Virus record (IMG/VR): IMGVR_UViG_3300000553_003188
Span: 3,634 to 34,583 of that record
Length of the DNA stretch: 30,950 nucleotides
DNA from: a virus
Strand: one strand, 5' to 3'
Shown here one piece after another: positions 1 to 28,776 of this stretch; position 1 is the stretch's first letter; each line of letters starts with the position of its first letter. Below the pieces are notes generated by a model. It did no database searches, was not told the origin of the DNA, and saw only the letters and a list, made by a program, of their open reading frames with translations. A program made the translations under genes and the position numbers.

Positions 1-767
1 GGCATACTATAATGGTCATTATAAATTCGCTTTAGCCTATTCCAGTTTATGCTAGCTAACACATGTCCCGGAATAGTTTTTTTAATGCTCGAAGGGTTCT
101 TCCAATCCATTGTTGTTTGAGAATTCATAATTCCTTCGTAATAGGTTATCCTGTTTGCTCGTTTTGGAGAACCTTTCGACCATCCTGGCCAGCTGCGGAA
201 TTCCTTTCTGAATTCCAACACCTTTGTTTGGATATCGGATTCGGTTGCCCCGGTGAGCACATCAACCAGAATGTCACTGAGGAAGTCCTGTACGATCTTT
301 GGTGTATCACTGCGTTTGAGGTCAAGCCCCATTGCTTTGATTTCGCCTTTTTTACCGTTAGTATCCTTGCGCTTGCCTTCCTTGTCATAGATAAGCACGG
401 CATATCTTTTCTTTTTGATAAACAATCCTTTGATTGCACAAAGCTCGCGTGCCGCCCTGATTATGGCTCCGTTTTTTTCCGGACAATTAAATGCTTGCTT
501 CATGAACTCAGGAAAGCTTGCGTTGGTCATGTCGCCAATCTTATCATATAGATCGGTTACGTTTTCCTTGGTCCACTCAAAGTCCTTGAATTCTGGAAGA
601 TCTTTCATAACAGGATAAGCAGAGAAATAACCAGAATTATGTACCAGTAATCCGTTAGCAAAGAAATATGGATGATTTTTATCCATTCCTATGTCGTATA
701 CATATTCGTCTTCAAATTCCCCGAGATCTTCAACAGATGATATCTCTGTTATGTAATGTTCCACCAT
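1..767 (-). CDS. 43: DNA polymerase C-terminal fragment (Pol-C) with intein C-half, partial
   Basis: This is the last fragment of the T4-type family B DNA polymerase; it runs off the left edge, so its C-terminus is missing. The ATG at 767 has an AGAGG Shine-Dalgarno and lies inside the 3' end of the upstream endonuclease gene (19-nt overlap). Residues 1-44 are an intein C-half: YVYDIG block, then FFANGLLVHN, with the C-extein starting at Ser45 (SGYFSAYP). The extein carries the KKRYAV motif, a stretch like T4 gp43 (KIMGLE-type, here IKAMGLDLKRSDTPK), and near the edge HVLASINWNRL, as expected for the thumb region. Joined to the fragment ending at 1846 it restores the catalytic motif YGDTD-S. 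It is too short for the usual ORF criteria only because it is cut by the window. The assignment is very secure; whether the halves actually splice is inferred. Confidence 0.93.
   Translation of the reverse strand, partial: MVEHYITEISSVEDLGEFEDEYVYDIGMDKNHPYFFANGLLVHNSGYFSAYPVMKDLPEFKDFEWTKENVTDLYDKIGDMTNASFPEFMKQAFNCPEKNGAIIRAARELCAIKGLFIKKKRYAVLIYDKEGKRKDTNGKKGEIKAMGLDLKRSDTPKIVQDFLSDILVDVLTGATESDIQTKVLEFRKEFRSWPGWSKGSPKRANRITYYEGIMNSQTTMDWKNPSSIKKTIPGHVLASINWNRLKRIYNDHYSM
636..767 (-). mobile_element. Split intein C-half (Int-C, 44 aa) in DNA polymerase
   Basis: The first 44 residues of Pol-C match an intein C-terminus: block F (YVYDIGMDKNHPYFFANG) and block G ending LLVHN, followed by Ser as the first extein residue. 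The penultimate His and terminal Asn needed for branch resolution are present. The partner N-half ends the fragment at 1849-2193. Together they make a mini-intein of about 159 residues without an internal nuclease domain. Confidence 0.9.
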
Positions 768-1792
768 TTTACAACCTCTTTTATTACAGTGTTTGCATCT
801 TTTATAAAGTCAGCTTCCCAGATTATTTTTAACGAAAAACCCCTAGCAGTTGCAGCTTTTATCTTATCATAATCATATGCCCAAATATCTTTAGCTGTCA
901 TTTTGAGATGTGGATGATAAAATGAAGATTTATACATTAATGGGTTACAATGCCAATAATCGCCATTGAATTCGATAATTTTCATACGTTGACTATCTGT
1001 TATATCATAAAAACATGGAGATTGCAATACGTCGCTCCATATACAAAACTGATTGGTCTTTACTGTATATTGAAGTGATGCACCGAGACTGCTTTCTATA
1101 CATTCAATAAATGTGAGTTCGGCTTTAGAAGTATATCCTCTATTGTTTCTTTTGGATAAGATTTCTAAAGCTGTTGGTTTATCTACTGAATATTTTGACA
1201 TTATCCAATCTATGTTAGAAGATTTACCTTTTTCTTGATTGTAGTTGATCCATTTTTGGTATCCATCTAGTCCGTATTTCTTTTCAAAATAATCTAAAGT
1301 ATTAGTGTATCTTTGTTTCTCAACATAATTTTCCCATATTTGCAGGCCAACCTGCTCTCCATGACGCGCTATACATTTTTCCTGGGTTACAGCACGAGAC
1401 CGGTTGAATTCGTCAAATTCTTCAACAGACCATCCGTACTTTTCTTTCTTGGTTTCATAAAGATTTTTGACTCTTTGTTTTTCTCGATAAGATTCCCATT
1501 TTTCTAAACCAATTTCATTGCCATATCTAGCCATATATGTTTCTTTAGTCCGCCTAGTATTATTCTGTCTTAGAAAATCAAATCTATTAACAAGATCGTC
1601 TAAATCGTGTGATACTAAATGGCAAAATGTATTGTAATATCCATTGGTTAAAGATAATCTGTTTGATATGATGTAGTTGTACAACATTTGTATTTTTTCT
1701 ATTTCAGATTGAGAATATGATCGTTGATTTGTAGCCGCTCTAAACCTAGCTGAGTTTATTACGTCGATGATATTATCAATTTTCTTTGGCAT
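749..1792 (-). CDS. Free-standing EDxHD/Vsr-like homing endonuclease between polymerase halves
   Basis: A 347-aa protein lying between the two intein-bearing polymerase fragments, in the same orientation. The C-terminal third carries a Vsr-like (PD-(D/E)XK-related) nuclease core: CFYDITDSQ, then MKIIEFNGDYWH, then IWAYDYDKIKAA and LKIIWEADF. The ligase endonuclease at 18370 has the same order of motifs. The middle holds imperfect repeats (RYGNEIGLEKWE, RHGEQVGLQIWE, KYGLDGYQKW), probably DNA-contacting. It has an AGGAG Shine-Dalgarno and a late-type promoter just upstream. Dassa and colleagues (2009) described this arrangement, a split intein flanking a free-standing nuclease, as fractured genes in marine metagenomes. 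Role inferred: it cleaves intein-less polymerase genes and so spreads the element. Confidence 0.88.
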   Translation of the reverse strand: MPKKIDNIIDVINSARFRAATNQRSYSQSEIEKIQMLYNYIISNRLSLTNGYYNTFCHLVSHDLDDLVNRFDFLRQNNTRRTKETYMARYGNEIGLEKWESYREKQRVKNLYETKKEKYGWSVEEFDEFNRSRAVTQEKCIARHGEQVGLQIWENYVEKQRYTNTLDYFEKKYGLDGYQKWINYNQEKGKSSNIDWIMSKYSVDKPTALEILSKRNNRGYTSKAELTFIECIESSLGASLQYTVKTNQFCIWSDVLQSPCFYDITDSQRMKIIEFNGDYWHCNPLMYKSSFYHPHLKMTAKDIWAYDYDKIKAATARGFSLKIIWEADFIKDANTVIKEVVKWWNIT

Positions 1793-1814
1793 ATTATGCG
1801 CTCCTATTATGAGT

Positions 1815-1822
1815 TATTTATT
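1815..1822 (-). promoter_or_regulatory. T4 late-type promoter for the polymerase homing endonuclease
   Basis: On the minus strand this reads AATAAATA, one mismatch from the T4 late consensus TATAAATA. It lies about 22 nt before the endonuclease ATG, with AGGAGC between as ribosome binding site. It would let the nuclease be expressed late, separately from the polymerase. Confidence 0.55.
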
Positions 1823-1845
1823 CACAATAGGAGCTGTGTTATGAT

Positions 1846-2363
1846 TCACAACGAAATAACCTTATCACCGATAGAAAGTTCAGTAGGTTTCTTGCTTACA
1901 AGCTGTCCATCCTTGGTAAGTATCATGATCGAATGATCGGCAGTAACAATCACGCTTTTGCCATCTGTTGTACTAACTTGGTATTTCTTTTTGGATACCT
2001 TATGTCGATAAACGTAATTATAATTTTTCCAATCAGTTGTTTTTAAAGAATGATCATATCCAATTAGTTTGATTTGATCATTAACAGAATATTCTTTATC
2101 TCCTTCATTCCAAAACAGATTCCCATTTAGGAATAGATCTTCTATCGTTCGTTGGCCAACCGAGGTGTTGATAATCGAAGATGCGTCAACCGAGTCGGTG
2201 TCGCCATAAATGCAGCTAATACCAAGATGGTTGTAATCGCCGGCAATTATCTCGTTGATTTTGCTCTGCATGTGCTTCACGATGCAGCGTCCGCTTAGCG
2301 TTGTACTTTGTGCCACCCTTGCATCAAAGAATCTTGATCCGGCATTTCCCAACGCCCCGTATA
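1846..2363 (-). CDS. 43: DNA polymerase middle fragment, exon 2, ending in intein N-half
   Basis: Second exon of the middle polymerase fragment. It starts inside a Leu codon completed by exon 1 and reads YGALGNAGSRFFDARV, then STTLSGRCIVKHMQ, up to motif C (YGDTD), which carries the catalytic aspartates of family B polymerases. The intein N-half follows at once and the ORF ends with GDKVISL. A conventional gene finder would call an ORF from an ATG at 2376, but that start lies within the intron; the exon boundary is after G2364. Spliced exons 1 plus 2 give 708 nt, an uninterrupted 235-residue frame. The piece must be joined post-translationally to Pol-C to give a working palm. Confidence 0.9.
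1849..2193 (-). mobile_element. Split intein N-half (Int-N, 115 aa) in DNA polymerase motif C
   Basis: The intein begins with Ser directly after YGDTD, the pol-c insertion site also used by archaeal family B polymerase inteins such as Tli Pol-2. Block A is SVDASSIINT, block B contains TADHSIMI with the TxxH motif, and the piece ends GDKVISL followed by a stop. There is no nuclease domain. Ser1 and Ser+1 are used as nucleophiles. Length plus the 44-residue C-half is that of a minimal split intein. Confidence 0.9.
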
Positions 2364-2616
2364 CCTTAATCTTCAAACAGAATCGTTAGTTCTATTCCGC
2401 ACCGTTATGTGCTGCTGCATGTTACCATGCAGAGGAGACTATATCACCATCCATAAATGGATGCTACCCGTTTCGGCTCACTTGAGCCTACGATCTTTCG
2501 ATCTAGTCGTTGAACCTTCATCTTTCGATGCTTGGCTGCTGATTGTCCAGCAACTGGAGTTTCCAGCAATTAGAGCAGTTTTCATTAAACAGTTACCTGT
2601 TTACGTCGCAATATTT
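2364..2616 (-). mobile_element. Group I intron (253 nt, no ORF) in DNA polymerase
   Basis: The intron sits between LLNS and YGALGN of polymerase motif B. On the minus strand the core elements of group IA introns can be read in order: AATTGCTGGAAACTCC (P), AATCAGCAGCCAAGC (Q), GTTCAACGACTA (R) and GATATAGTC (S). The 5' site follows T2617; exon bases UCGU pair with intron GCGA at 2609-2606, giving the usual U-G wobble at the cleavage site. The last intron base is G2364. Splicing joins T to TA, making Leu, so motif B becomes LLNSLYGALGN, as in T4. No endonuclease is encoded inside, so it may rely on a neighbour for movement. Confidence 0.9.
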
Positions 2617-2806
2617 ACGAATTAAGCAAAATTTTCTTGATCAATTGTCGCTGATCGTAAAAATCTCGGGTCTTGGATATAGCTACTTTACTTTCTAATG
2701 AATTAGGTACAATCTTGTTGTTTTCTAGCTTCAAATCATTGACTTTCATAAAAGAAATGATACCTGCTATATCATTGTTTTTAATTAAGTTATTTAGAGA
2801 TGCCAT
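2617..2806 (-). CDS. 43: DNA polymerase middle fragment, exon 1
   Basis: First exon of the middle polymerase fragment. The start chosen is the ATG at 2806, which has AAAGGA at ideal spacing; upstream in-frame ATGs at 2845 and 2821 lack one. The end, FYDQRQLIKKILLNS, is the first half of family B motif B; the reading frame then meets a TAA inside the group I intron. The N-terminal part (MASLNNLIKNNDIAG) belongs to the fingers region and has no intein features. The preceding piece, Pol-N, ends with a stop 1 kb away, so the two must associate without covalent joining, much as the split gp43A/gp43B polymerases of some Aeromonas T4-like phages are thought to do. Confidence 0.88.
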
Positions 2807-2826
2807 TAATGATCCTTTCATATTTA

Positions 2827-2834
2827 GATAAATA
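2827..2834 (+). promoter_or_regulatory. T4 late-type promoter for the opposite-strand endonuclease
   Basis: GATAAATA, one mismatch from TATAAATA, 42 nt before the ATG at 2876. The overlapping bases read TCTAAATA on the other strand toward Pol-M, a weaker match, so the short intergenic gap may fire both ways. Confidence 0.5.
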
Positions 2835-2875
2835 TACTTAATCAAGTGTAAGAGTAACTACAGCAGGGAGTCAAT

Positions 2876-3868
2876 ATGGTCGAAAATATCACCTATGTAA
2901 TCTGTCAAATTTGCGGAGCGCATAAGCGTGAACTTAACGGGCATATCCGCATGCACAGCATAACAATGCAGAATTACAAGTTATCTTTTCCGACTGCCCA
3001 AATAATATGTCAGGAAGCAAAAGAGCTTAAATCAGTTGGTGTTAAATCATCTGTTGCAAATCGGCCGCCTGTTTCAGCAGAGACACGATTAAAAATGTCT
3101 AAAAGCCGATCGCATAGATGGCAATTACTTAAAGAAGAAATGGGTGAAGAAAAATATTTAGTTATGAAACAAGAAAATGCTGCTAAAATGCGAGAAAGAA
3201 AAGGTGCTAATTTCAAACATAGTGAATCTACAAAACAAAAAATGCGAGGGCCAAGGCCGCATGCTTCGCGACCTAAAACTGCAGAGGAAAAATTAAAATG
3301 TAGTGAAGCTGCAAAGCGGCGGCCGGCAAGAGGACCACATACTGAAAAAACTATCGCTAACATGAAATTAGCGTGGGTAAGACGTAAATCTAACAAACTA
3401 ACATATGCGAAATATGTTGAAAATACTAGAAAAAGAATGACAACACCAGATGCAATTGGGCGTATTAGACGAGCAGTAAGCAAGCGATTATCAAATCCAA
3501 TATATGCCCAGAAGCAGTTTGATACAAAACCAGAATTAAAATTTCAAAAATTTTTAGAACAAGCAAACATTGCATTCACTAAACAATATATTATAGAAAC
3601 TGTCAACGGCAACTGGACTTATGATTTTTATATACCAAGTCTTTTAATGTTAGTCGAAATAGATGGAGAATACTGGCATTCAAAATCTTTAGAGCAAGTT
3701 AATCGCGACAAAATTAAATCAAATGTAGCCGGCCTTAAGGCCGGCTACAAACTGGCTAGAATAAGTGATAAAGACTTTAGACCAGAGATTATATTTTACT
3801 CACATCAAGAATTAACTACTCACAATGGTAACATGCTAGCAAACAGGTATTTAAAGTTCATTAGCTAA
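2876..3868 (+). CDS. Zinc-finger/NUMOD3 homing endonuclease inserted in the polymerase, opposite strand
   Basis: A 330-aa protein pointing against the polymerase and separating Pol-N from Pol-M. The N-terminus has a C-x2-C-x9-H-x3-H zinc finger (Cys10, Cys13, His23, His27). The basic middle has NUMOD3-like repeats (HSESTKQKMRG, HTEKTIANMK), modules known from DNA-binding parts of homing endonucleases. The C-terminus has a Vsr/EDxHD-type core: YDFYIPSLLMLVEIDGEYWH, then NRDKIKSN. Shine-Dalgarno CAGGGAG precedes the ATG. Its 3' end overlaps the Pol-N stop by 18 nt in convergent orientation. Unlike the other two nucleases in the window it is not flanked by intein halves. Role inferred: a mobile nuclease whose insertion accompanied the splitting of the polymerase, comparable in position to MobE-type insertions in other T4-like phages. 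Confidence 0.85.
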   Translation: MVENITYVICQICGAHKRELNGHIRMHSITMQNYKLSFPTAQIICQEAKELKSVGVKSSVANRPPVSAETRLKMSKSRSHRWQLLKEEMGEEKYLVMKQENAAKMRERKGANFKHSESTKQKMRGPRPHASRPKTAEEKLKCSEAAKRRPARGPHTEKTIANMKLAWVRRKSNKLTYAKYVENTRKRMTTPDAIGRIRRAVSKRLSNPIYAQKQFDTKPELKFQKFLEQANIAFTKQYIIETVNGNWTYDFYIPSLLMLVEIDGEYWHSKSLEQVNRDKIKSNVAGLKAGYKLARISDKDFRPEIIFYSHQELTTHNGNMLANRYLKFIS

Positions 3869-5542
3869 TTGTTGTTTTATAGATTCTGCAAGATCTGCAG
3901 ATATATCAATTCCATACCCTGCCAGATCAGCGCATTCGCGCATTAACGATTGCAGTTCTTGTCGCTCAGAATACCATCGAGCCAGCAAACCGGGTATTAT
4001 GCCCGGCTTATCACCGCTAAATATTGTTCCATTAGCAGATAATACCAAATTTTTACCGCTGTTGAACACGTAATCGTAAAGCTCACTTGCAGACACGGTT
4101 GAGGTCGATCCATCCTCAAAATCGACCGTAACCGGCGTTAGATCTTGGTTCATGACCTGGTTGTATTCAAGTGTGCCAAACATTGCGTTCCAAGCATCTG
4201 CAAAACTTTTCTTTTCGTTTTGCATACGTTTAGTAATAAGCTTGTCTGTACTTTCTGGACGTATATGTCCAACAATTGTTTCAGGACTCATGTTTAATGC
4301 GCGAATAGCAGATGGATATAGACTGTTAATGTCAACACCGCCGATCCAGTCGTGCATACCCGGCTTTGGATCAGCTACGTATGCGCCAACCACTCCAGAA
4401 ATGTTTATATCACTATTTTCATCTTTATCGCTGGAACTAGATTCGCTGTGAAAATTATCTCGCTTACGATTAGGAACCACAAACCCTAAATCCCACGATT
4501 CATTAACAATTGCTTGGTCAATTAACCCAACTGCGCCCATAGTAGTTGCAAGCAGTACACAATTTTCGTGAGCAAGATTATTACTCAGCTCGATGAACTT
4601 ATTTTTTGCGTCAATCTTTACCAACAGTAGTACGTCTTGCCTGTTATATTCAATAAATCTTTCAAAATCATTGTTATATAACGAATCTAGGCTGCCTTCA
4701 TAGTGTGTTTTCTTGTCTCCAACTTCGTATTCACCCACAAAATCCAGCCGATAACTATGCATTTCGTGATATGTATGCTTGCGATAAAGTTGCAGGTAAT
4801 CCATATGTATGCGTCCTACCAAATCGTAGGTTATGGTTTCTCGTCCATACGCCTCATATTCTCTACGCTTAGGAAACCTGCCCCATAAGCACAATCTACG
4901 GGTTTCTTCCTTACCCAACACCTGCACGATTCTGTTGTGGATGTAGGGTATATCAAATCTTTCGGAATTCCATCCGCTTAAAATATCCACATCATCTATT
5001 AGATCAAGGAATATTTCCAGTAGTTCTTTTTCGCTTTCGCAAAGCACAGTGTCTTCAAACTTTGCAACAATTTCTTCTGCAATTTCTTGCGACATGTTTT
5101 TTGGCTTAATAACCATAGTAAAATTACGCTGCATCCATGATAGATATACAGATATAGCAGTAATTGGAGAAAATGCGTCATCTGGACTTGAGAAGCCTCG
5201 CAAAGGATCAAAGTCCACCTCAATATCAAAGAACCCAACATTCAGTTCTGGAGATGCTGCGTTTTTATAATTATCGTATAAACAACGGAAAATTGGATTG
5301 ATATCACTTTCACGCAAGCTGTTTTTTGGCAACATAGCCAATTCTCGCGTAAATTCTTTTAGCTTATTGGTTGTAAATTTTTCACAAAGTGTTCCATATA
5401 TATCAGGTACTTTACCTTTATTGCTGGGCCAATAGACGGCATATTTTGCCGTATGAGTATTAAAAATACGCTTTCCAGCTTTATCACGTTCTACAACAAG
5501 AATTTGATTCTTGTCTCTGTCATATAATGCATCTATATACAT
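3851..5542 (-). CDS. 43: DNA polymerase N-terminal fragment (Pol-N): exonuclease and start of palm
   Basis: 563 residues of a T4-type family B DNA polymerase. Proofreading motifs are intact: Exo I FFDIEVD (Asp106, Glu108), Exo II SGWNSERFDIPY (Asp197) and Exo III YNRQDVLL (Asp303). Polymerase motif A is DINSLYPSAIRALN (Asp404). The fragment ends WYSERQELQ..., then a stop just before the fingers, where other phages continue without a break. Motifs B and C lie on the next two fragments. The ATG at 5542 has AAGG at good spacing. An acidic Ser/Asp insert (residues about 366-379) is not in T4. It is probably catalytically complete as exonuclease, but not as polymerase without Pol-M and Pol-C. Confidence 0.95.
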   Translation of the reverse strand: MYIDALYDRDKNQILVVERDKAGKRIFNTHTAKYAVYWPSNKGKVPDIYGTLCEKFTTNKLKEFTRELAMLPKNSLRESDINPIFRCLYDNYKNAASPELNVGFFDIEVDFDPLRGFSSPDDAFSPITAISVYLSWMQRNFTMVIKPKNMSQEIAEEIVAKFEDTVLCESEKELLEIFLDLIDDVDILSGWNSERFDIPYIHNRIVQVLGKEETRRLCLWGRFPKRREYEAYGRETITYDLVGRIHMDYLQLYRKHTYHEMHSYRLDFVGEYEVGDKKTHYEGSLDSLYNNDFERFIEYNRQDVLLLVKIDAKNKFIELSNNLAHENCVLLATTMGAVGLIDQAIVNESWDLGFVVPNRKRDNFHSESSSSDKDENSDINISGVVGAYVADPKPGMHDWIGGVDINSLYPSAIRALNMSPETIVGHIRPESTDKLITKRMQNEKKSFADAWNAMFGTLEYNQVMNQDLTPVTVDFEDGSTSTVSASELYDYVFNSGKNLVLSANGTIFSGDKPGIIPGLLARWYSERQELQSLMRECADLAGYGIDISADLAESIKQQLANEL

Positions 5543-5604
5543 GTAATTACCTTAAGTTTAGTATGTTATTCTACATGGTAGATGATGTTGGTCGCAAGAT
5601 ATAA

Positions 5605-5612
5605 AATAAATA
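5605..5612 (+). promoter_or_regulatory. Late-type promoter placed for a leaderless transcript
   Basis: AATAAATA, one mismatch from the T4 late consensus, separated by only ATTGC from the ATG at 5618. If the element covers -13 to -6 as in T4, transcription would start at the A of this ATG. Confidence 0.45.
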
Positions 5613-5617
5613 ATTGC

Positions 5618-6391
5618 ATGCAGCGTGTTTTTATTACCGCACCTAGTGCAAAAGCCGGATCTACCTTGTTGGCATGGCTACTTGCTCAACATAGCTATAT
5701 TAAGCAGCCGTCGATACCCGAAGAAGACGTACTTGGCCACATGCTTAATATTCTCGACTGGACACCAAGACACGACAGGACCATGTTAAACAACGGACTG
5801 CAACCAATTTATGCCAATCAACGGAATATAGCGCATATCCAAACCTTGTACGATAACATGGTAAATCCAAATAATTTTGATGTATCAAGTGTTAAATTTG
5901 TAGGATTTACCAGTTTTAATTGGCTACAAAACATTTTCAGCAACGATAATATTATTGTAATAATTAGAAATCCGCTCGATTGGTATGTTAGTTGGAGAGA
6001 ATGGCCTAAAAAGTTCAACTGGAAACCTGTCGACACTTCTGTTGAGTTTTGGATTAACACTTATATACGTCCAGCAGCACTGAGCCTAAAAAGTGCTAAA
6101 AATATTAAAGTGATACATTTTGAAAATTTGGTAAAATTTCCAGTTCAAACCATGACTAGCATTTATCAATATCTTGGTTGGCCTCCAGAACCTATAACTT
6201 TTGACGGACATTTAAATGTCTATAACAACTACACTGCTATCAAACCTGTTACCAACGCAGATAGCCATTCGTTGGTAACAGATGTAATAGGTAGAGGTAA
6301 GCATCTATTAGAGCCAGACTTGGCAGATAAAATTACAGCTATTATCAACGGCAATGATGCATTGAAATCGTTATGGTCTGACTTCAAATAG
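5618..6391 (+). CDS. Sulfotransferase-family protein
   Basis: Likely a PAPS-dependent sulfotransferase of about 257 residues. The N-terminus VFITAPSAKAGSTLLAWLL matches the 5'-phosphosulfate-binding loop, and IIVIIRNPLDWYVSW matches the 3'-phosphate-binding motif (R-x-P-x4-S-type). IKVIHFENLVKFP and IYQYLGWP fit the later part of the fold. An upstream in-frame ATG at 5582 would add 12 residues; I prefer 5618 because homology starts there and a late promoter sits exactly 5 nt before it. There is no Shine-Dalgarno at 5618. It is divergent from the polymerase and converges, without a gap, with galE. Substrate unknown; a surface polysaccharide or other host glycan is possible. Horizontal acquisition from a host is likely. 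Confidence 0.78.
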   Translation: MQRVFITAPSAKAGSTLLAWLLAQHSYIKQPSIPEEDVLGHMLNILDWTPRHDRTMLNNGLQPIYANQRNIAHIQTLYDNMVNPNNFDVSSVKFVGFTSFNWLQNIFSNDNIIVIIRNPLDWYVSWREWPKKFNWKPVDTSVEFWINTYIRPAALSLKSAKNIKVIHFENLVKFPVQTMTSIYQYLGWPPEPITFDGHLNVYNNYTAIKPVTNADSHSLVTDVIGRGKHLLEPDLADKITAIINGNDALKSLWSDFK

Positions 6392-10801: not shown

Positions 10802-11380
10802 CTAAAAGTGCATGGCGATAATGCTCGCAGCCCGGCCAGCATTATCGCCATATAAATTCTCAATCACCTGCTGTTTTTTTGATTCATCTGCCAGCATGGT
10901 ACGTATTTCACTTGCACTTGATACTGTATCACCTGCAACTTCAAAGGGCACAACCGGCATTATGGTCACATATGCATGACCATTTTTAGTATCAAACGGC
11001 TTCATTTCCACGTTTTGTTGCCATTCCTGCAGATATGTTGGTGTGCCGTCTTTTTTGACACCAAATTTTAACCTATTGGCGTCCTTTTCACTTACAACAA
11101 AGACAACATAGTCCGTTGTTGCCTCGTAGTTTGCCAATATCTCGCTGGCGATATATGGATTTTTCACTTCTGCAATGCGATCGCCGGGTATTCCAGCCAA
11201 TTGTGCAAGAGATTTACGCTCCTCAAAATTAAAAGGACTATCCGGTCCAACTTTTCCGCTGGTGGCAATCCAACGATCGGCGTAGGGAAAACACATACCC
11301 AGTAACGAATACATTGCAGCATGTCCTAGATGGAAGGGCTGGAATCTTCCTGGATAAATGACAACGGTTTTTCCTTGCAT
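10802..11380 (-). CDS. HxGH nucleotidyltransferase (NMN adenylyltransferase-like)
   Basis: 192 residues of the nucleotidylyltransferase alpha/beta phosphodiesterase superfamily. YPGRFQPFHLGHAAMY holds the GRFQPFHxGH signature, and TVSSASEIRTML corresponds to the C-terminal ISSTxIR motif that binds ATP phosphates. Closest known function is NMN adenylyltransferase (NAD synthesis or salvage), which several large phages encode; related cytidylyltransferases cannot be excluded. Start ATG directly follows the stop of the upstream gene (TAAATG). The last codons contain one arm of a 13-bp hairpin facing the speD end. Probably co-transcribed with the two nucleotidyltransferases upstream. Confidence 0.82.
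   Translation of the reverse strand: MQGKTVVIYPGRFQPFHLGHAAMYSLLGMCFPYADRWIATSGKVGPDSPFNFEERKSLAQLAGIPGDRIAEVKNPYIASEILANYEATTDYVVFVVSEKDANRLKFGVKKDGTPTYLQEWQQNVEMKPFDTKNGHAYVTIMPVVPFEVAGDTVSSASEIRTMLADESKKQQVIENLYGDNAGRAASIIAMHF
10812..10851. terminator. 13-bp hairpin at convergent speD / adenylyltransferase ends
   Basis: ATGGCGATAATGC pairs perfectly with GCATTATCGCCAT around a 14-nt GC-rich loop. It starts 11 nt after the speD stop and lies wholly inside the 3' coding end of the opposing gene. There is no T-tract, so it may act by pausing, by RNA 3'-end protection or as a weak bidirectional terminator. Confidence 0.55.
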
Positions 11381-27948: not shown

Positions 27949-28776
27949 ATGAAAAAATACATCATTGCAGCATTAATACTGACAGTTGTATCAACACCAT
28001 TGTTAGCTGCGCCGCAGGCTCCGGCCCAACCAATTGCTGCTTGTCAGGCACAAGCTCCATACGGATTTCCACAAAGCGCACATCCGGGAATACCGCTATG
28101 CCATCATGCATATGCTACATTTGTAGATCCTGTTGCAAAGATTCCGGAATGGGTTGTATACACACTCACATCGACACACGCATTAGGATGTTTACCACGT
28201 ACAAATGCGTTTGCTGCTGATCAAAGTTTTGCTGGTAGTGCAACTCCGCAAGATTATGCCGGTACTGGGTTTGACAAAGGACATATTGCTCCTGATGGCG
28301 ACATGAGTTTTGATAATCAAGCTGAAAATGAAAGCTTTTTAATGACCAACATGAGTCCTCAAGCTCCTGCATTTAATCGTGGTATATGGAAGTTGCTGGA
28401 AACATCTGTTCGTGGATGGGCAGTACAAACTGGTCATACGTTTACTGTGTATGCTGGGGACATATATGGCGCCGGAGACAAGACAATAGGCAACGGTGTA
28501 GTAGTTCCGCACGCTATGTTTAAAATAGTCATAGACGACACTACTAAACAAGTTGCAGGCTGGGTATTTCCACACGTTGCCCCTTACCCAAATCTCGGAA
28601 ACGACCTAACAAAGTTTCGTGTAGCAGTTGCTAATATTGAACAAGCCGCTGGTATTAAGTTTGGATTTCCTGCAGGTGCAAGTGAACTTGCAGCAGGTCA
28701 AGAATGGAAAGTAGATTTTGGAGCGTTAACTGCGGCAAAAAGACAAAAATGTGGAGCTAATGCAGCGGTAGACTAA
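27949..28776 (+). CDS. Secreted DNA/RNA non-specific endonuclease (NUC1/EndoG family)
   Basis: 275 residues. An N-terminal signal peptide (MKKYIIAALILTVVSTPLLA, cleavage after Ala20-Ala21) marks export to the periplasm or outside. The catalytic block is GFDKGHIAPDGDM (DKGH, residues 109-112, form of the DRGH motif), ESFLMTNMSPQAPAFNRGIWKLLE with the metal-binding Asn143 and Glu151. It resembles Serratia nuclease and EndoG. Four or more Cys suggest disulfides. It has its own late promoter and a strong terminator, so it is a single-gene unit. Possible roles: degrading host or competing DNA at lysis, or excluding other phages; not shown. Confidence 0.9.
   Translation: MKKYIIAALILTVVSTPLLAAPQAPAQPIAACQAQAPYGFPQSAHPGIPLCHHAYATFVDPVAKIPEWVVYTLTSTHALGCLPRTNAFAADQSFAGSATPQDYAGTGFDKGHIAPDGDMSFDNQAENESFLMTNMSPQAPAFNRGIWKLLETSVRGWAVQTGHTFTVYAGDIYGAGDKTIGNGVVVPHAMFKIVIDDTTKQVAGWVFPHVAPYPNLGNDLTKFRVAVANIEQAAGIKFGFPAGASELAAGQEWKVDFGALTAAKRQKCGANAAVD

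What the first reader, a model, noticed from the sequence alone, without database searches (positions are those of the whole stretch)
1..5542. One DNA polymerase gene interrupted at three levels: split gene, group I intron, split intein
The T4-type polymerase is spread over Pol-N, Pol-M (two exons) and Pol-C. To make enzyme the phage must excise a group I intron from RNA, trans-splice an intein at motif C, and assemble Pol-N with Pol-M/C without a covalent link. Two homing endonucleases on opposite strands lie in the gaps. Each type of break is known in T4-like phages; seeing all three in one gene, two of them inside motifs B and C, is unusual. Motifs Exo I-III, A, B and C are all intact once pieces are joined.
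Basis: partly seen in the sequence, partly recalled or inferred. Interest (0 to 1): 0.92.

Follow-up and report, generated by a model that had tools for sequence, protein, structure and literature searches.

The report
Phage DNA polymerase gene broken thrice
A giant-phage DNA polymerase gene really is cut up by a gene split, a self-splicing RNA intron and a protein-splicing split intein, and comparison with relatives shows that these come from two separate selfish DNA units (split plus intron travel together, intein with its own nuclease travels alone), so the pattern is uncommon but recurrent and gives a natural experiment on how homing nucleases and introns team up.

Summary
A T4/RB69-type family B DNA polymerase is encoded in three proteins, one of them interrupted by a 253-nt ORF-less group I intron (2616-2364) and two joined through a split intein (GDTD|S ... 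HN|S). Joined in silico, the 975-aa enzyme aligns end to end with intact relatives, and the pieces are under purifying selection. The combination is not unique: 6 of 87 distinct related polymerases with all three sites resolved carry it, and most breaks also occur alone or in pairs. New here: the three breaks are two mobile units. Unit A is a homing-endonuclease gene that splits the fingers domain plus the intron 63 codons downstream. All 10 introns found sit in split genes (0 in 80 unsplit ones), and a donor-like/recipient-like/product-like trio (L016/L026/L018) shows nuclease, split and intron moving as one ~1.6-kb tract that ends just past the intron. Unit B is the split intein with its own nuclease, sitting in an otherwise L005-like gene. 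The fingers break is where Aeromonas phage gp43A/gp43B is naturally split. Best reading: collaborative homing of nuclease plus intron, beside a fractured-gene intein. Individual mechanisms are known; the composite is a new variant.

The parts
3851..5542 (-). Pol-N: exonuclease domain, motif A and first fingers helix (563 aa)
   Evidence: DNA_pol_B_exo1 2.2e-22 and DNA_pol_B 7.6e-11; phrog_262/2062 E<1e-115
2876..3868 (+). HEG1: free-standing Vsr-like endonuclease gene, antisense to the polymerase, in the fingers gap (part of unit A)
   Evidence: weak Vsr hit, E 5.9e-4, below Pfam cut-off; phrog_559/9084 homing/HNH endonucleases; orthologues in L016 and L018; dN/dS 0.31 L016/L018
2617..2806 (-). 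Pol-M exon 1: second fingers helix up to motif B (MASLNNL...KKILLNS + first base of Leu)
   Evidence: start chosen by ribosome-binding site AAAGGA (inference)
2364..2616 (-). ORF-less group I intron in motif B, between the first two bases of the Leu codon of NS-L-YG (part of unit A)
   Evidence: Rfam RF00028 96.8 bits; 37 of 71 predicted pairs with compensatory change in 9 homologues
2194..2363 (-). Pol-M exon 2, extein part up to GDTD of motif C
   Evidence: DNA_pol_B 3.1e-8
1846..2193 (-). Intein-N (115 aa, Ser1, block B TADH) plus stop (part of unit B)
   Evidence: Intein_splicing E 7e-8, 32.9 bits, just under cut-off; phrog_27191 2.3e-23
749..1792 (-). HEG2: endonuclease gene between intein halves (347 aa, EFNGDYWH motif; part of unit B)
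   Evidence: phrog_22677 5.1e-48; orthologues in the same place of most retrieved PolB split inteins; dN/dS 0.14
636..767 (-). Intein-C (44 aa, ends LLVHN; next residue Ser+1), overlapping the HEG2 stop by 19 nt
   Evidence: Intein_splicing 5.4e-4, under cut-off
1..635 (-). Pol-C extein: rest of motif C, palm and thumb; runs out of the window to its stop at L004:3390

Best explanation
The gene is one functional, probably essential polymerase occupied by two neighbouring selfish units. Unit A: a homing endonuclease gene sits in a surface loop at the fingers tip and divides the gene into Pol-N and Pol-M; 63 codons on, an ORF-less group I intron sits in motif B. The nuclease most likely cuts alleles lacking the unit in the roughly 120-bp stretch from fingers loop to motif B, and repair copies nuclease gene and intron together (collaborative homing); the intron then masks the site. 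Unit B: a split intein at motif C with its own endonuclease gene between the halves. Expression: the intron self-splices so exon 1 and exon 2 join; Pol-M and Pol-C trans-splice through the intein to restore GDTDS; Pol-N then associates non-covalently with the joined Pol-M/C. Shown: anatomy, in-frame joints, RNA covariation, purifying selection, co-transfer of split and intron, separate transfer of the intein. Inferred: nuclease activity and cut sites, splicing, assembly and enzyme activity.
For: Among 96 distinct related polymerases, split/intron states are 80 neither, 10 both, 6 split only, 0 intron only (Fisher p 7e-10). On a Pol-N tree split changes at least 11 times, intron 7, intein 16; in independent pairs differing in intron, split goes the same way in 4-6 of 6 and never the other way. 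L018 is mostly 90-100% identical to L016 over nuclease + exon 1 + intron but about 74% outside, and matches L026 outside: left breakpoint between informative sites 9581 and 9584, exon 1 27/27 donor sites, right side all recipient from 11238 (intron ends 11164). A second pair with an unrelated HNH nuclease in the same gap, L005/L093, shows the same tract ending at the intron; exon 1 17/17 donor. Introns of L005 and L007 are 100% identical although Pol-N is 87% identical. Unit B: relative to L088/L005, informative sites after the window's intein are donor-like for 3 sites, then overwhelmingly recipient-like. P1 covaries across the splice site: exon UCG with GCGA, exon UCC with GGGA. dN/dS: Pol-N 0.07, Pol-C 0.06, intein-N 0.07, intein-C 0.04. 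The break maps to a loop (residues 563-575 of intact relative L052) between two fingers helices, at the position of the 44RR gp43A/gp43B break.
Against: No cleavage, splicing or assembly was measured. Most comparison sequences are metagenomic contigs. L061, L139, L141 and L150 have the split without intron, so the nuclease can live there without it. The tree-based pair test alone is borderline (median p 0.06). The triad fixes the cut region only to the segment between the two insertion points. HEG1 and HEG2 family assignment is weak at sequence level (HEG1 below Pfam cut-off, HEG2 no Pfam hit).
Confidence: 0.8

Rival explanations
1. Three unrelated insertions accumulated in a hot-spot gene; split and intron transfer together only because they are about 190 nt apart and are co-converted, while the nuclease cuts elsewhere and the intron has no role in its homing.
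For: Two unrelated nuclease types occupy the same gap; some split genes lack the intron.
Against: No intron is ever seen without the split; in both transfers the tract ends close to the intron, and in the intact empty site only about 120 bp separates the two insertion points.
Confidence: 0.25
2. The locus is a decaying polymerase pseudogene, with replication done by another polymerase.
For: The window's own record is a 34.6-kb fragment, so a second polymerase elsewhere in that genome cannot be excluded.
Against: All joints are in frame, motifs are intact, dN/dS is 0.04-0.07 across pieces; a 452.8-kb relative with a closely related split intein has no other PolB and no PolA.
Confidence: 0.04
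3. The arrangement is an assembly artefact or chimera.
For: Metagenomic contig with two ambiguous codons in Pol-C.
Against: The same kinds of junction occur in several independent contigs (L013, L016, L060, L093, L127) and the split-intein locus in isolated phage MIJ3.
Confidence: 0.02
4. Pol-N and Pol-M are rejoined covalently by an unrecognised trans-splicing system.
For: Every other break in this gene is repaired covalently (inference).
Against: HEG1 is antisense between them; Rfam finds no second intron; Pol-N and Pol-M have their own stop and start; L007 and Atu_ph07 have nearly adjacent separate ORFs with no element between; the gp43A/gp43B precedent works as two polypeptides (PMC2988022).
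Confidence: 0.03

Closest known systems
Split PolB with split intein of Pseudomonas phage vB_PaeM_MIJ3 (PMC6892783)
   Same: Same insertion point GDTD|S, related intein (block A SVDGSTILNTSL against SVDASSIINTSV here), endonuclease gene between the halves.
   Different: Fingers not split, no intron; its intervening nuclease gave no match to HEG2 at the cut-off used.
Split gene 43 (43A/43B, seg43) of Aeromonas phages 44RR and 25 (reviewed in PMC2988022)
   Same: Break in the same fingers loop (alignment column 643 against 633 here); in phage 25 a homing endonuclease gene is associated with the split.
   Different: No intron or intein reported there; different nuclease family; no such composite reported.
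Fractured genes (Dassa et al. 2009; text not held, known from citing papers and memory)
   Same: Conserved enzyme gene broken by a split intein with a free-standing, often Vsr-related, endonuclease gene between the halves.
   Different: From memory, no report of the same gene also carrying a fingers split and an intron.
Collaborative homing: free-standing nuclease plus ORF-less intron (T3/T7-like phages, cyanophage, ICP1; PMC10448857)
   Same: Nuclease gene outside but near an ORF-less intron; both acquired together.
   Different: Here the nuclease gene lies inside the coding sequence and itself splits the protein; two nuclease families share the spot.
[quoted passage not shown]
   Same: RNA-level and protein-level splicing in one phage gene.
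   Different: Different gene; two mechanisms, not three.

Membership tests
Group I intron | Match to the group I covariance model above gathering score | tested here: met
   96.8 bits against 50
Group I intron | P1 with U.G at the 5' splice site, terminal G, exons joined in frame | tested here: met
   P1 covariation in A1
Group I intron | Self-splicing | not testable with these tools
   needs in vitro transcription or RT-PCR
Class 1 split intein / fractured gene | Nucleophile at residue 1, TxxH in block B, terminal HN, Ser/Thr/Cys at +1 | tested here: met
   S1, TADH, LLVHN|S read from the sequence
Class 1 split intein / fractured gene | Profile match to the intein splicing domain | tested here: inconclusive
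   both halves match Intein_splicing in the right order but under the whole-domain cut-off (32.9 and 20.2 against 35.8 bits)
Class 1 split intein / fractured gene | Free-standing endonuclease gene between the halves | tested here: met
   HEG2 1792-749; orthologues in the same place in most retrieved PolB loci
Class 1 split intein / fractured gene | Protein trans-splicing | not testable with these tools
   needs co-expression
Split gp43 (43A/43B) polymerase | Break in the fingers loop, all conserved motifs retained | tested here: met
Split gp43 (43A/43B) polymerase | Fragments co-purify and polymerise | not testable with these tools
   shown for phage 25 in the literature (PMC2988022)
Collaborative homing pair | Nuclease gene outside the intron and both acquired together | tested here: met
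Collaborative homing pair | Nuclease cuts the intron insertion site | not testable with these tools
   tract limits place the cut only between fingers loop and motif B
EDxHD (Vsr-like) homing endonuclease (HEG1, HEG2) | Profile match and catalytic motif | tested here: inconclusive
   HEG1: Vsr 20.1 bits against cut-off 27; HEG2: no Pfam hit; DGEYWH / NGDYWH motifs by eye

The most novel reading that the evidence does not exclude
Unit A is a composite selfish element in which the nuclease gene makes its home by permanently splitting an essential enzyme at a tolerated loop, and uses an ORF-less intron 63 codons away as mask and repair of its own cut site in motif B; different nuclease families have taken the same seat beside the same intron lineage, and loss of the nuclease leaves a lasting two-subunit polymerase (L007, L013 and perhaps Atu_ph07).
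Probability: 0.5. Interest if true: 0.75.

Novelty: new variant of a known kind. Interest (0 to 1): 0.6.

Why it matters
It has been unclear how a free-standing homing nuclease and an intron come to collaborate (PMC10448857 says so outright). This polymerase family offers closely related empty, single, double and triple states, with donor-like, recipient-like and product-like alleles, so the cut site, the role of the intron as a mask, and the origin of permanently split polymerases can be tested directly. It is also a gene whose product needs RNA splicing, protein splicing and subunit assembly, useful for studying why such baggage persists in an essential gene.

Tried and rejected
Scan for relatives of the window's HEG1 found none by pattern; the L016 orthologue was used instead. 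Scan with the HNH nuclease found only loci already known plus one truncated contig, so it adds no independent test of its link to the intron. T4-late-promoter-like motif between HEG1 and Pol-M: only imperfect matches, not found there in L016/L018; dropped. Dassa et al. 2009 is not held. Literature searches for a phage polymerase with intron plus split intein found none. The frequency of the intein is biased by using HEG2 as a query, so it is not interpreted. In the L005/L093/L009 trio the left breakpoint could not be placed.

Full report
WHAT IS THERE. The window is positions 3634-34583 of a 34,583-base virus record, a fragment. On the minus strand lie Pol-N (5542-3851), Pol-M exon 1 (2806-2617), a 253-nt group I intron (2616-2364), Pol-M exon 2 with intein-N (2363-1846), HEG2 (1792-749) and intein-C with Pol-C (767 to beyond the window; stop at L004:3390); HEG1 lies antisense at 2876-3868. 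Rfam finds the intron at 96.8 bits. Removing intron and intein gives KKILLNS-LYGALGN and IYGDTD-SGYFSAY in frame. The joined 975-aa protein aligns over its whole length with one-ORF polymerases of relatives, for example L012 at 73% identity, and matches RB69 gp43 at E 5.9e-61. The gene after Pol-C resembles a sliding clamp by eye only; it had no Pfam hit.

RELATIVES. A viral-contig scan with Pol-N gave 80 loci; scans with Pol-C, Pol-M/intein-N and HEG2 gave more; MIJ3, Phosso and Atu_ph07 came from the phage collection. The breaks vary: most polymerases are unbroken or have only the intein; MIJ3 has only the intein, Atu_ph07 only the split. Six distinct loci with all three sites resolved have split, intron and split intein: window, L013, L016, L060, L093, L127; introns confirmed by Rfam. 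L060 is also broken in exonuclease motif I with another HNH-like gene, and L079 has an additional in-frame intein in exonuclease motif II. Two intein sites two residues apart are used: GDTD|S (window, L008, L013, L042, L088, MIJ3) and GD|TDS (L009, L016, L060, L079 and others).

TWO UNITS, NOT THREE. After removing near-duplicates (98.5% Pol-N identity), split and intron states are known for 96 polymerases: 80 neither, 10 both, 6 split only, none intron only. On the Pol-N tree the traits change at least 11 (split), 7 (intron) and 16 (intein) times; in independent pairs that differ in the intron, the split goes the same way in 4 to 6 of 6 and never the opposite way (median sign-test p 0.06, so the tree test alone is borderline). 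Direct evidence is the sequence of transferred tracts. L018 and L016 are about 74% identical through Pol-N, then 97-100% over the end of Pol-N, 89-100% over the nuclease gene, 91-100% over exon 1 and 94-100% over the intron, then fall to 74%. Site by site, L018 follows L026 (unbroken) almost throughout up to 9581, L016 from 9584 through 27 of 27 sites in exon 1, and L026 again from 11238; the intron ends at 11164. In an unrelated nuclease background (HNH gene in the same gap), L005/L093 shows the same picture. L005 and L007 have identical introns, although their Pol-N proteins are 87% identical and L007 has no nuclease gene in the gap. The window's split intein plus HEG2 is a separate unit: up to 97% identical in DNA to L088 in HEG2 and up to 100% to L008 in intein-N, against roughly 60-85% in flanks, with informative sites switching to the L005-like state within 6 nt after the intein.

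FUNCTION. The intron is under RNA selection: 37 of 71 predicted pairs show compensatory changes in nine homologues, including P1, where the exon Ser codon (TCG or TCC) and the guide sequence (GCGA or GGGA) covary. All ten introns splice in frame (the L127 junction, NSAYG, is one codon off and was assigned by hand). Polymerase and intein pieces show dN/dS 0.04-0.07, HEG2 0.14-0.21, HEG1 0.31. A 452.8-kb relative with a closely related split intein has a single PolB, the broken one, and no PolA. The fingers break falls in a loop between helices 551-562 and 576-581 of a model of intact relative L052 (mean pLDDT 71.5), which Foldseek places with RB69 gp43; the sequence alignment puts the 44RR gp43A/gp43B break there too. 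The phage 25 split polymerase co-purifies and is active (PMC2988022), so non-covalent assembly of Pol-N with Pol-M/C is plausible.

VERDICT. Each mechanism is known. The composite of a gene-splitting nuclease and a nearby ORF-less intron moving together, with two nuclease families in the same seat, is what is new. Cleavage, splicing and assembly are inferred.

Noticed in passing
window 20159-19320, 19269-18370, 18359-17415 (-): ATP-dependent DNA ligase also looks fractured by a split intein at its active-site motif (KLDG|C ... VHN|CR), with an endonuclease gene related to HEG2 (shared phrog_22677) between the halves. The ligase-N half shows no intein Pfam hit.
   Followed up: partly
L060 6525-9332: Fourth break in this polymerase: exonuclease motif I is split around an HNH-like endonuclease gene; near relative L048 (97% DNA identity) is unbroken. 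L193 has a similar break. How the exonuclease halves rejoin is unexplained.
   Followed up: partly
L079 6117-9650: In-frame intein in exonuclease motif II (SGWN|C ... VHN|S) of a polymerase that also carries the GD|TDS split intein.
   Followed up: partly
L050 10294-11487: A TnpB-like ORF (by eye) lies in the split-intein gap next to a HEG2 that has lost its N-terminal half.
   Followed up: no
L013 10744-10900: Split intein with no nuclease gene between the halves, only about 155 nt.
   Followed up: no
L046 11277-11580: Second partial copy of the polymerase C-terminus downstream of the gene.
   Followed up: no
L086 2886-5359: Phosso's DNA ligase is annotated as two ORFs, while Atu_ph07's is one.
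   Followed up: no
window 26228-24564 (-): Phage-borne serine protease with a kumamolisin activation domain, next to collagen-like GPTG repeat proteins (26868-26209, 27872-26886).
   Followed up: no
window 5582-6391 (+), 16383-15343 (-), 27949-28776 (+): Sulfotransferase, UvdE UV endonuclease and a DNA/RNA non-specific endonuclease.
   Followed up: no
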